The notes under the pieces are model-generated. The model had not been told where the DNA came from. It was given only the letters and a program-made list of their open reading frames with translations, and searched no databases. A stretch of 64,000 nucleotides of DNA from Candidatus Angelobacter sp. (GTDB lineage: Bacteria > Acidobacteriota > Terriglobia > Terriglobales > Acidobacteriaceae), in assembly GCA_025462835.1 (NCBI GenBank), contig JAOAPH010000035.1, forward strand, positions 1 through 64,000, written 5' to 3'. The stretch's first letter is position 1, and each line of letters starts with the position of its first letter. Below are positions 1,323-22,020 of the stretch, piece by piece. Position numbers and translations under genes: made by a program.

Positions 1323-1727
1323 ATGGCAAAAATAACTGGAATCGGTGGGGTCTTTTTCAAAAGCAAGCGGGATCATAAAGCTCTCGCCGTTTGGTATCAA
1401 AAACATCTCGGCATGCCGCTTGAGCCCTGGGGCGGTGCCGCTCTTCGATGGCCGGACGACCGCGCAGAAGACAAAGGCGTTACGGCCTGGCATATTGCCG
1501 ATCCGAAAACTGACTGGTTTAGCCCGAGCGAATCGAGTTTCCAGATCAATTACCGCGTCGATAATCTCTTAGAGATGATCACTCAGCTCAAATCCGCGGA
1601 CATTGAAATAGTAAAAGGCCCCGAATTTCATGAAAACGGAGTTTTTGCCTGGATCATGGATCCGGAAGGAAACAAGGTTGAACTTTGGGAACCAAAAATT
1701 TTCGACGAAAAAAATAAATCGAAATAA
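1323..1727 (+). CDS. VOC family (glyoxalase/bleomycin-resistance-like) protein
   Basis: A 134-residue single vicinal-oxygen-chelate module. The start is well supported by AGGAGG about 9 bases upstream of the ATG. The N-terminus gives the first beta-alpha unit (ITGIGGVFFKS, then AVWYQKHLGM) and the C-terminus gives the typical ending with DPEGNKVELWEP, whose Glu is the usual metal ligand. VOC proteins use a divalent metal for isomerisation, thiol transfer or dioxygenation, and the substrate cannot be read from the sequence. It appears monocistronic: the flanking gaps are 241 bp and about 440 bp. The AT-richer sequence here differs from the GC-rich genes at 1-1081, so this gene may sit on the edge of an acquired segment (inference). 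Confidence 0.8.
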   Translation: MAKITGIGGVFFKSKRDHKALAVWYQKHLGMPLEPWGGAALRWPDDRAEDKGVTAWHIADPKTDWFSPSESSFQINYRVDNLLEMITQLKSADIEIVKGPEFHENGVFAWIMDPEGNKVELWEPKIFDEKNKSK

Positions 1728-1834
1728 TTGGCGCTTTGTCGACATGTCTGGCCACGGCTCTGCGGTGAGGAAAACTTCAATATAATGCTAACCTCGAAAG
1801 AAGCCGCGTTCCGCTCAGCCAGCACTCAGCCAAA

Positions 1835-1871
1835 ACTCAGATCACTGTGCTGACAGTGACTGATTCTGAGT
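1835..1871. repeat. Long stem-loop beside tRNA fragment
   Basis: ACTCAGA plus TCACTG pairs with CAGTGA plus TCTGAGT: 13 base pairs with a 6-base loop and a single 5-base bulge. There is no T-run, so it is unlikely to be a simple terminator. It sits 30 bp before the orphan tRNA 3' fragment and may be part of the same recombination site or an integrase arm site (inference). Confidence 0.5.
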
Positions 1872-1901
1872 GACGGCTGCTGTTCGAGGGCAGCAATGTA
1901 T

Positions 1902-1935
1902 CCAGGGGGTCGGAGGTTCAAATCCTCTCGCCCCG
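1902..1935 (+). other. Orphan 3' end of a tRNA-Pro-like gene (possible att scar)
   Basis: The sequence reads as the 3' part of a tRNA: a CCAG-like end of an anticodon stem, a variable loop with GGGGGTC, a 5-bp T stem (GGAGG/CCTCT) enclosing TTCAAAT, then CGCCCCG as the 3' acceptor strand. The matching 5' half (CGGGGCG and a D arm) is not found upstream, and CCA is not encoded. The GGGTCGGAGGTTC context is typical of tRNA-Pro. Such 3' tRNA fragments arise when tyrosine-integrase elements insert into tRNA genes, leaving one duplicated end. No integrase is visible nearby. The gap at 1728-2166 holds this fragment, the stem-loop at 1835 and one copy of a short repeat; I see no gene in it. Confidence 0.55.
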
Positions 1936-2166: not shown

Positions 2167-2697
2167 ATGGCATTGGTCGTCTTTCTCCGGGGAGTGAATG
2201 TCGGGGGCCATAAAACTTTCCGACCGAGCCTCCTGGCAAATGAACTGAGTGACTTCGACGTTGTGAATCTTGGCGCCGCCGGAACTTTCGTGGTGCGGAA
2301 ACGAATCAGCCAAGCCAAACTGCGTGCAGAGCTCCTTCGACGATTGCCATTTGTGGCCGAGGTAGTGATCTGCAAGGGTGACGATGTCCTGGATCTGGCA
2401 TCCGGGAACCCGTTTGTGGGTCAACCTGCGGGACCAAAGATCGTTCGGTTTGTGAGCATCTTGGCGAAACGCGGACAGTCTTTGTCTTCAACACCTCTCA
2501 GTCTTCCTGCAGGCGGCGAATGGTCCGTGAAAATCCTTGCCACGAGAGGCCGATTCGTTCTCGGTCTCTACCGGCGCGAAATGAGGACGATTCGCTACCT
2601 TGGCCAATTCGACAAGATCTTCGGTGTCCCGGCAACGACTCGTAATTGGAACACGATAACCGCAATTGCCAAAATCCTGCAGAATGCGAAATCGTGA
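2167..2697 (+). CDS. DUF1697 family protein
   Basis: A 176-residue soluble protein. The N-terminus (ALVVFLRGVNVGGHK, then a DVVNLGAAGTFVV segment) is the signature of the DUF1697 family, small alpha/beta proteins with no established activity that are common in soil bacteria. The ATG at 2167 is preferred because the family begins directly with this motif. An upstream GTG at 2158 would add three residues. No clear ribosome-binding site precedes either start. The gene stands alone between two copies of a short direct repeat and downstream of an orphan tRNA fragment, so it could be a remnant cargo gene of an integrated segment (inference). Confidence 0.75.
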   Translation: MALVVFLRGVNVGGHKTFRPSLLANELSDFDVVNLGAAGTFVVRKRISQAKLRAELLRRLPFVAEVVICKGDDVLDLASGNPFVGQPAGPKIVRFVSILAKRGQSLSSTPLSLPAGGEWSVKILATRGRFVLGLYRREMRTIRYLGQFDKIFGVPATTRNWNTITAIAKILQNAKS

Positions 2698-2845
2698 TTC
2701 AGCCGCGGCCTTCTTCTCGCCCTTCTGTTGTTTTTTGGAATTCTGAGGCCACCGCGTCGCGGCTCTGGCAATGACTGCCAAATCTTCTTATCACAAATTG
2801 CAGCCGAGGCCGGGTTGCAAGGCCTTGATTTCAGTCAGCGTGCTG

Positions 2846-2869
2846 CAGAAAAGTTCTGATATATCGTCC
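2846..2869 (+). repeat. Direct repeat copy 2 (AGAAAAGTTCT type)
   Basis: CAGAAAAGTTCTGATATATC followed by GTCC; the partner copy is at 1973-1994. TATACT follows at 2873-2878 and could be a -10 box for the gene starting at 2952, so the shared block may be promoter DNA rather than an insertion scar. Confidence 0.45.
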
Positions 2870-2951
2870 CCTGTATACTCCTCCCACTAAACTGGCAGCG
2901 AAGAAACGGTCCTGAAGAGACCCGTCGTGGTTTCGACTTAGAAACGGATTG

Positions 2952-6229: not shown

Positions 6230-6371
6230 GCCGCATACCCCCGCGGTGGTAGCTGATGTTAATTCGATACCCGGGAGCCGTCAAACAAACTTCCCTTCCT
6301 CTGTGCCTCTGTGTCTCTGTGGTGAGTGTTTCTTATTGACATAAGCCACTCAATATAAATATCATTACGCA

Positions 6372-6605
6372 ATGTCCTTCCGCACCTGCATTCAGCTCAA
6401 GACGAACGGTCTGCAATGCCAATCCCCGGCGCTGCGCAATTCCACGCACTGTCATTTCCACCACCAGCACCGCCGCATGAAGCGCCGGCAGATCAATATC
6501 GCCACCCTCGACTCCAACAAGGCCCGCCTCGACGCGTTGCATAAAGTGATGAACGCGGTACTTAACAACAGGATCGATCCCGAGGTTGCAAGGACGCTCC
6601 TCTAA
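6372..6605 (+). CDS. Small Cys-rich protein with C-x9-C-x10-C-x2-H motif
   Basis: A 77-residue protein. Cys6, Cys16, Cys27 and His30 form a compact C/C/C/H pattern at the N-terminus, a probable zinc knuckle. It is followed by a basic stretch (HHQHRRMKRRQ) and a helical tail with LDALHKVMNAVLNN. I associate small proteins with this N-terminal layout with many acidobacterial genomes, often in several copies, but no function is known to me. The basic linker would suit nucleic-acid binding (inference). The ribosome-binding site is weak, and the frame has good codon use and no alternative long frame. It lies between two kinase genes, divergent from one and co-oriented with the other. Confidence 0.55.
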   Translation: MSFRTCIQLKTNGLQCQSPALRNSTHCHFHHQHRRMKRRQINIATLDSNKARLDALHKVMNAVLNNRIDPEVARTLL

Positions 6606-6712
6606 GGCATCAACAGCTCGCAACCCCATTAGGCAGAGGAATTTAGCTCAAAGTGCAATGCTTCCCTATATTTGCAGATCGAAATCTTGTAACTGAAGCA
6701 AGCAAAGTACCT

Positions 6713-6746
6713 TAGCGACGGGGAGGGGAGAGGGGGAGGGTCGCTA
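6713..6746. repeat. Inverted repeat flanking a polypurine tract
   Basis: TAGCGAC at 6713-6719 pairs with GTCGCTA at 6740-6746 around a 20-base G/A-only tract. It lies about 134 bp before the GTG of the kinase at 6880 and could be a terminator of the small gene upstream or a leader structure. Confidence 0.4.
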
Positions 6747-6879
6747 GATATGAGGTAGTAAACAGGAGTAAGTGCTAGGCCGAGAAGCCGATTCTGGACG
6801 GATCACGCCCACCCGGATTCGTTGACTGGCCGCGTTCGCGTCCGTAAGATGTTGCAACTAGAAAGCTGGGTATCTCTGA

Positions 6880-20757: not shown

Positions 20758-22020
20758 TTATGAGGCTTCCTGGAAGGCCTTCATGATCTTTGGGGAAATA
20801 AACTTTTCCGGTGCCTTGAAGCCTTCCACTTCCTTCGCTGCCTTAAATTTCTTCCTGGCTTCGCGTTTCAGATTCTCGTCGGTTGCGCCAGCCAAGTAAT
20901 AGCGGGTGAGCATGCTGGCTCCAGCGTAGAAGTTTGCCAGACCCATCTTTTTACCTTGTCCTGTATAGATGTAATTGTTGAGCTGAGATTCAACATCATT
21001 GCCCTCATAAAAGAGAACAATTAGTCTCGAGAGCAATGGGTCGTCGTCGGTGGCGACAGCTTGCGCGGTATCTTTCGATTTCAACTCTGCCATTCCGTCT
21101 GTGGCTTCTTGGTTATGAGAATCCTGACCCAGAACTTCCTGGAAAAACCTGCGTGCTTTCTTGAAATCGCCCTTTGCGAGCGCCTTTTGGCCGTCCGAGA
21201 CATACCGGGCTACATCAATCTTGGGAACTTCCTTGGCTTTGACCGGAGCCGGATTGTTAACCGCAGCTGCGATGGGGGCAGACGAGTTAGCTTTGACGGC
21301 AAGCTGATTCATCTTGCCCACTTGGCCTAACGGATCGCCGGGACCGGAAGGGTTCAGTTTCACAGCCTCTGCATAAGCTGACGCAGCACCGGAAAAGTTA
21401 TTGTTTGCGGCATCTGCAGCAGCCTCTGCCATTTTGGCTTCATAATTGCGGATCTTTGTCAGATAGCCTTGTGCGTCTCCCTGATATTTTCCTGTTACGC
21501 CGCCCAGCGAACCTTTTGCGGACCCGAAATCGCCGCGATTGTAAGCATCAATTCCCTGATCAAGCTTGCCCTTCATCTGCGCGTCTTGATCGGCGTTGTT
21601 TTTCGCAGCGGCGTCGGCGGCGGCTTTGTCTTGCTTCAACTTTGCGATCTCAGCCAACTTTGCTTGCGCATCCGGAACTCGCGGACTTGGCGGTTTAACG
21701 TTGCGGAACTTGAATTCCGCTTGATCGTACTTACCTTCCTGCATCAACCCGACGCCTTCATTAAAATTAAGGTTAAATCGGTTGAGGGCTTTAGTAGCCT
21801 CCGCGGTATAGGTGTCGCACTTGGACTTAGAATCCTTATATCCAGCATCTTCAGAGGCGAGTTGGCAGAAAGCAGCTTTGGCCCCGAAGGTGTCGCCATT
21901 AGTTTCTGCGGCCGTGCCCTTGGCGTAGAGGTCATCCTTCTTGTCAGCGCGCGCGGCGGGCGCAGCGGCAAGAAACACTGCGATAAGCAGAGCGCTAGTT
22001 TGAGCTTTGTACAATTTCAT
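20758..22020 (-). CDS. Secreted TPR-like protein coupled to kinase
   Basis: A 420-residue protein with an N-terminal signal peptide (SALLIAVFLAAAPAARA). The mature part is helical with degenerate TPR units, recognisable by A-rich phrases such as DLYAKGTAAETNG, NEGVGLMQEGKYDQAEFKF, GIDAYNRGDFGSAKG and GQKALAKGDFKKARRFF, and a K/E/A-rich linker. ATG at 22020 is preferred to GTG at 22026. The start lies inside the last 26 bases of the kinase gene upstream, so translation is likely coupled and the two proteins should act together. The kinase's own C-terminal part also carries TPR-like repeats outside the membrane, so an extracytoplasmic complex of the pair is plausible (inference). Confidence 0.75.
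   Translation of the reverse strand: MKLYKAQTSALLIAVFLAAAPAARADKKDDLYAKGTAAETNGDTFGAKAAFCQLASEDAGYKDSKSKCDTYTAEATKALNRFNLNFNEGVGLMQEGKYDQAEFKFRNVKPPSPRVPDAQAKLAEIAKLKQDKAAADAAAKNNADQDAQMKGKLDQGIDAYNRGDFGSAKGSLGGVTGKYQGDAQGYLTKIRNYEAKMAEAAADAANNNFSGAASAYAEAVKLNPSGPGDPLGQVGKMNQLAVKANSSAPIAAAVNNPAPVKAKEVPKIDVARYVSDGQKALAKGDFKKARRFFQEVLGQDSHNQEATDGMAELKSKDTAQAVATDDDPLLSRLIVLFYEGNDVESQLNNYIYTGQGKKMGLANFYAGASMLTRYYLAGATDENLKREARKKFKAAKEVEGFKAPEKFISPKIMKAFQEAS

What the first reader, a model, noticed from the sequence alone, without database searches (positions are those of the whole stretch)
1835..1935. Orphan 3' tRNA-Pro-like end with an adjacent 13-bp stem-loop
The 3' half of a tRNA, including T arm and acceptor strand, stands without its 5' half. 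A long stem-loop sits 30 bp away. This is the usual look of an attachment-site duplication left by an integrated and later decayed element.
Basis: partly seen in the sequence, partly recalled or inferred. Interest (0 to 1): 0.5.

Follow-up and report, generated by a model that had tools for sequence, protein, structure and literature searches.

The report
Fossil tRNA-proline docking sites of islands
A broken proline-tRNA end in a soil acidobacterium marks a spot where mobile gene islands once docked, and the repeat beside it leads to a family of recombinases that appear to dock at proline-tRNA genes, a target this enzyme class was not known to use.

Summary
The fragment is real: window 1902-1935 equals nt 39-72 of the intact tRNA-Pro(CGG) of a same-genus genome, 34/34. 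The same 3' end recurs in pieces elsewhere in this assembly and in many relatives, some beside integrase genes, so the attachment-site reading is supported. The stem-loop is part of a single-copy 122-nt hairpin (1780-1901) that abuts the fragment; its link to the attachment site is unproven. A second site was missed: 1965-2008 is a copy of a repeat ("R2") that ends in CCGACCA, the tRNA-Pro 3' end. R2 is found almost only in Acidobacteriota. In relatives it forms the far end of islands whose near end is a large serine recombinase gene (SR) running antisense into an intact tRNA-Pro. R2 fits the left half of that recombinase's attP: its GTTC motif starts 24 bp from the presumed crossover, against 19 bp in the tRNA T arm, the 5-bp attP/attB shift described for serine integrases. 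The window thus holds two decayed attachment sites about 70 bp apart, with no integrase beside them. No empty site was found and nothing was tested at the bench. In the window itself this is ordinary decay; the tRNA-targeting serine recombinase is the interesting part.

The parts
1902..1935 (+). tRNA-Pro(CGG) 3' fragment, nt 39-72, orphan; probable attachment-site remnant
   Evidence: 34/34 identity to intact tRNA-Pro(CGG) of same-genus G003; further partial copies in own genome
1965..2008 (+). R2 repeat: proposed far-end (attP-derived) half-site of serine-recombinase islands; GTTC at 1980-1983, shared core CCGACCA at 2002-2008
1780..1901 (.). single-copy imperfect hairpin of 122 nt that abuts the tRNA fragment; role unknown
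   Evidence: no full-length relative in 150 genomes
2840..2870 (+). weak R2-like sequence lacking the CCGACCA end
   Evidence: 14.3 bits, E=0.015 in a 488-kb search
2167..2694 (+). DUF1697 gene, possible cargo between R2 and the R2-like sequence
   Evidence: Pfam PF08002 E=5.2e-6; 85% DNA identity to another genus (G030), 77% to same-genus G001
1323..1724 (+). VOC (glyoxalase-fold) gene, left flank, probably resident
   Evidence: Pfam PF00903; lies among the same two neighbour genes in G031, in another order

Best explanation
The segment is a decayed docking place of genomic islands that use tRNA-Pro genes. Two sites survive. (1) 1902-1935 is a tRNA-Pro 3' half of the kind carried by tyrosine-integrase islands that cross over in the anticodon loop. 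(2) 1965-2008 (R2) is the far-end half-site of islands driven by a large serine recombinase (SR). SR would recombine R2-X (attP; X is the 3' end of its own gene) with the tRNA-Pro 3' end (attB) at CCGACCA. The tRNA stays intact at the near end and R2 is left at the far end. SR would read GTTC of the tRNA T arm in attB and GTTC of R2 in attP. Islands pile up in tandem; deletion then leaves bare sites, as here. Shown by sequence: fragment identity, repetition, R2 conservation, SR-tRNA overlap, SR-R2 geometry, 5-bp offset. Inferred: that SR is the enzyme, the crossover point, the tyrosine-island origin of the fragment, and the order of events in this window.
For: Fragment and copies. R2 conserved in relatives. 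SR carries Resolvase, Recombinase and zinc-ribbon domains. Of 19 SR loci put through ARAGORN, 15 (14 distinct) overlap an intact tRNA-Pro of anticodon CGG, GGG or TGG, and 2 more overlap a tRNA-Pro fragment. In 9 of 13 SR loci R2 lies on the far side of SR in tRNA orientation. All 9 SR-bearing genomes are R2-positive against 14 of 91 others, p=4e-7; within the family 9 of 9 against 13 of 51, p=3e-5. An intact SR gene reads straight into R2 in L257. GTTC starts at position 24 in R2 and 19 in tRNA-Pro, matching the zinc-domain motif positions 16-24 (attP) and 11-19 (attB) of LI integrase (PMC3783163, passages).
Against: No empty site, no activity data. SR of this type was not found in the own assembly (best 29% identity). 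Four of 13 SR loci lack a far-side R2; three have only 8.8, 2.6 and 0.1 kb of contig there, but G061:C11 (a decayed copy) does not fit. Two of the nine fitting pairs are 36 and 64 kb apart and need not be one island. Related genomes inflate the p-values. The right half-sites show no clear motif match. Window sequence after R2 does not clearly match SR or tyrosine-integrase ends (best 1 of 300 shuffles among 16 comparisons). The fragment lacks TTCGGGA on its left and ACCA on its right, which other copies have.
Confidence: 0.75

Rival explanations
1. Only tyrosine-integrase islands are involved; R2 is one of their far ends and SR is a passenger at the same hot spot.
For: Tyrosine integrase genes or remnants lie next to tRNA-Pro fragments, and in G019:C19 (L135) directly after R2; in L266 and L308 an integrase remnant follows R2. 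Fourteen R2-positive genomes lack SR of at least 45% identity.
Against: R2 tracks SR across genomes and in orientation; an intact SR frame runs into R2; R2 shares only CCGACCA with the tRNA, whereas the tyrosine-type far ends seen carry the tRNA half from the anticodon loop.
Confidence: 0.15
2. R2 is mainly a protein-coding remnant (the recombinase C-terminus WSALADDFRTF) or another conserved repeat and not an attachment site.
For: Antisense frame open in 39 of 41 distinct copies; 42% synonymous changes against 23% on average in column shuffles, reached by 6 of 300.
Against: Most copies have no SR coding frame next to them; they end at the tRNA 3' sequence and sit at island ends. Coding and attachment roles can coexist.
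Confidence: 0.07
3. The 34-nt piece is a plain tRNA pseudogene made by local deletion, with no island involved.
For: Both its edges differ from the other fragments, and I found no empty site.
Against: Repeated fragments beside integrase genes or remnants in own genome and relatives, and R2 about 30 bp downstream.
Confidence: 0.03

Closest known systems
tRNA-targeted genomic islands with tyrosine integrase (Islander type, PMC4383910, passages)
   Same: tRNA 3' fragments mark island ends; tandem arrays; integrase gene beside the tRNA; some integrases read across attP
   Different: SR islands share only CCGACCA between the two ends, so a tRNA-fragment search would miss R2; [quoted passage not shown]
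Large serine integrases of the LI/A118 kind (PMC3783163, passages)
   Same: Resolvase, Recombinase and zinc-ribbon domains; zinc-domain motif 5 bp farther out in attP than in attB
   Different: attB is the 3' end of tRNA-Pro genes and the recombinase frame runs into the tRNA; activity untested
Integration-dependent repressors of Mycobacterium abscessus prophages (PMC8092301, passages)
   Same: Integration changes the C-terminal end of an element protein, with attB at tRNA 3' ends
   Different: There the protein is a repressor and the integrase a tyrosine integrase; here it would be the serine recombinase itself
Integron gene cassettes and tycheposons (both recalled, no call)
   Same: Short stretches with one or two genes between repeated recombination sites
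   Different: No integron integrase or attC was looked for; island decay explains the short stretches equally well

Membership tests
tRNA-targeted genomic island (Islander signature) | displaced tRNA 3' fragment | tested here: met
   window 1902-1935
tRNA-targeted genomic island (Islander signature) | intact cognate tRNA on the same replicon | tested here: not met
   no tRNA-Pro among 33 typed tRNA hits of the 83.6% complete assembly; an intact one exists in same-genus G003
tRNA-targeted genomic island (Islander signature) | integrase gene between tRNA and fragment | tested here: not met
   none of the 7 PF00589 hits of the own genome lies on the window's contig C5; the window is at most a remnant of an island
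large serine integrase island (in relatives) | Resolvase + Recombinase + zinc-ribbon recombinase | tested here: met
   PF00239, PF07508 and PF13408 in three SR proteins
large serine integrase island (in relatives) | zinc-domain motif 5 bp farther from the centre in attP than in attB | tested here: met
   left halves only: GTTC at 24 in 70 of 77 R2 copies (many fetched by a pattern holding GTTC), at 19 in 15 of 15 tRNA-Pro beside SR
large serine integrase island (in relatives) | recombinase gene at one end and partner att half-site at the other | tested here: met
   9 of 13 SR loci
large serine integrase island (in the window) | recombinase gene present | tested here: not met
   best SR hits in the own genome 29% and 27% identity, on other contigs
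large serine integrase island (in relatives) | integration and excision activity | not testable with these tools
   needs bench assay
prophage | R2 present in viral contigs | tested here: not met
   0 matches of the strict pattern in viral contigs; phage genes inside the islands were not searched

The most novel reading that the evidence does not exclude
A family of large serine recombinases in Acidobacteriaceae uses tRNA-Pro genes as attB, reading the GTTC of the T arm as zinc-domain half-site. Integration also swaps the recombinase's C-terminal tail: R2-coded WSALADDFRTF when R2 is joined to the SR gene, tRNA-coded WSGREDLNLRPPG when integrated. That swap could act as an integration-state switch.
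Probability: 0.6. Interest if true: 0.65.

Novelty: new variant of a known kind. Interest (0 to 1): 0.5.

Why it matters
Serine integrases are prized for genome engineering, and in 2014 were stated not to be known to specify tRNA genes (PMC4383910, passages). A family whose attB is a conserved tRNA end would widen the known target range of this enzyme class and help explain tandem island arrays at proline-tRNA genes in abundant soil bacteria. It also gives a searchable end mark (R2) for islands that tRNA-fragment methods would miss.

Tried and rejected
Rfam cmscan of 1700-2100: two weak chance-level matches. Stem-loop as terminator: one minus-strand match, shuffles mean 0.7. Hairpin as multi-copy element: only short matches besides itself in 150 genomes, best E=7e-4 over about 30 bp. 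VOC gene as island cargo: rejected, since it stands among the same two neighbour genes in G031. Empty site in relatives: none found. Window sequence after R2 as an integrase 3' end: not convincing. R2 as chance: rejected. R2 in viral contigs: none.

A first count of GTTC in R2 gave 0 copies because my pattern was one base short; one search corrects it. Integron-like single-gene cassettes were considered: several intervals between sites hold one or two genes, but tandem islands with internal deletion explain them equally well.

Papers: passages read from PMC3783163, PMC4383910, PMC12884075, PMC8092301 and PMC5900883. All others were seen only as search listings. No listing that I saw describes serine recombinases at tRNA-Pro, but the library is open-licence PMC only, listings were capped, and the three papers that hold all terms were not opened.

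Full report
Observation. Window 1902-1935 holds 34 nt identical to the 3' part of tRNA-Pro(CGG) (nt 39-72) of a same-genus genome, G003. The 5' half, discriminator and CCA are missing, and ARAGORN calls no tRNA here. The window is contig C5 of an 83.6% complete assembly. The assembly holds further partial copies on C37 (two), C63 and C44.

Hairpin. The stem-loop is real and larger than described: 1780-1901 folds as one imperfect hairpin, and its right arm ends at the base before the fragment. It has no full-length relative among 150 genomes. I leave its role open.

tRNA-Pro as hot spot. 52 of 61 genomes (own included) carry the 34-mer with up to 3 mismatches, up to 7 copies per genome. Many of the copies fetched are intact tRNA-Pro genes; others are fragments. 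Fragments in G001:C40 and G019:C28 lie beside a tyrosine integrase gene, and in G019:C19 one does with R2 between. In the own genome the C37 copy at 21289 is followed by a 106-aa frame whose residues 27-83 match the PHROGs integrase family phrog_1 (E=7.2e-6; no Pfam match). Related frames lie beside tRNA-Pro sequence in other genomes (L051, L219). Many of these fragments start in the anticodon loop (TTCGGGA), as expected of anticodon-loop crossover. The window fragment starts just after that loop, so its left edge is damaged or was overwritten by the hairpin.

A second site. About 30 bp downstream begins 1965-2008, a copy of a repeat that I call R2. Its core is GTTC(T/G)AAAATCGTCNNCTAGGGCCGACCA. 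A sequence-only model finds R2 in 30 of 100 genomes at E<=0.05. At E<1e-5 all positive genomes but one are in the window's own family, and none of the 14 genomes of the sister family has any match. A strict R2 pattern hits 65 stretches of the GTDB-based genome collection: 64 carry Acidobacteriota names, one a Margulisbacteria name. It hits no viral contig.

What R2 belongs to. In G026 an island begins at intact tRNA-Pro(CGG) with a 499-aa serine recombinase gene on the opposite strand. Its frame runs into the tRNA and ends WSGREDLNLRPPGPEPGALPG. R2 lies about 16 kb away in tRNA orientation. Relatives of this protein occur in 27 of 150 genomes at E<=1e-20. Of 19 SR loci put through ARAGORN, 15 (14 distinct) overlap an intact tRNA-Pro with anticodon CGG, GGG or TGG. 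Two overlap tRNA-Pro fragments, one more distant homologue lies beside tRNA-Gln, and one beside no tRNA. The sequence after the tRNA is similar among them; it encodes the SR C-terminus.

Geometry. Thirteen SR loci of 45% identity or more, partial ones included, lie in genomes also scanned for R2. In nine, R2 is on the same contig, on the far side of SR, in tRNA orientation: G026 twice, G081, G033, G035, G061:C6, G065:C64, and at 64 and 36 kb in G067 and G019. G061:C1, G018:C25 and G065:C50 have 8.8, 2.6 and 0.1 kb of contig on that side and no R2 there. G061:C11, a decayed copy, does not fit. All nine SR-bearing genomes are R2-positive (E<1e-5) against 14 of 91 others, p=4e-7; within the family 9 of 9 against 13 of 51, p=3e-5. 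These tests ignore relatedness of genomes.

Half-site rule. In LI integrase the zinc-domain motif occupies positions 16-24 of attP half-sites and 11-19 in attB (PMC3783163, passages). With GA of CCGACCA taken as crossover dinucleotide, GTTC of R2 starts at position 24 in 70 of 77 distinct copies. GTTC of the tRNA T arm starts at 19 in 15 of 15 tRNA-Pro genes beside SR. Many of the 77 copies were fetched with a pattern that contains GTTC, so 70 of 77 overstates the independent evidence; the 5-bp offset itself does not depend on that. I chose the dinucleotide because it fits the rule. The right half-sites show no motif that I could match by eye.

Joined form. In Granulicella sp. UBA5172 an intact SR gene reads straight into R2 and ends WSALVDDFRTFWGSDL..., while a second SR C-terminus in the same genome runs into tRNA-Pro(CGG). 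R2-X is the junction expected of a circle or of tandem islands. R2's antisense frame is open in 39 of 41 distinct copies, with 42% synonymous changes against 23% on average in column shuffles (6 of 300 reach it). That hints at selection on the tail but falls short of proof.

Named example. Edaphobacter modestus DSM 18101 carries tRNA-Pro(GGG), SR (482 aa, ending at a TAG inside the tRNA part), a helix-turn-helix gene (PF01381), five further reading frames of 70 codons or more, and R2, within about 9.5 kb.

The window again. SR of this type was not found in the own assembly (best 29% identity), so R2 here looks like a leftover. DUF1697 at 2167-2694 lies between R2 and a weak R2-like sequence at 2840-2870 (E=0.015). 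It is closer to another genus (85%) than to same-genus G001 (77%), so it may be cargo; this is suggestive only. The VOC gene on the left is probably resident.

Verdict. The window holds two decayed sites, one a tRNA half and one R2. [quoted passage not shown] I saw no later contrary report in the listings, which is a limited search.

Noticed in passing
L136, L171, L172, L134, L135 (G035, G065, G019): Units of 95-97 bp between two CCGACCA ends (R2-R2 or tRNA fragment-R2) are alike in sequence in three genera, like a minimal non-coding cassette. The window's stretch between fragment and R2 is not alike.
   Followed up: partly
L124, L125, L126, L127, L175: Single genes or gene pairs (for example nitroreductase plus a second gene, VOC, Sel1 repeats) lie between tRNA-Pro 3' ends and R2 or between two R2 copies, with no recombinase in the interval by eye.
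   Followed up: partly
L232 (G085:C14): A more distant SR homologue (38% identity) lies beside tRNA-Gln(TTG), so the wider family may use other tRNA genes.
   Followed up: no
L305:2830-2858: The only non-acidobacterial R2 pattern match is in a Margulisbacteria MAG, where flanking sequence on both sides looks like an inverted repeat.
   Followed up: no
own assembly G000: No tRNA-Pro among 33 typed tRNA hits; in relatives several tRNA-Pro ends and R2 copies sit near contig ends, so assemblers may break at these repeats.
   Followed up: partly
window 6358-6766: A stretch with about 76-77% DNA identity to two places in same-genus G001 (C42 and C51), possibly a repeated gene or element.
   Followed up: no
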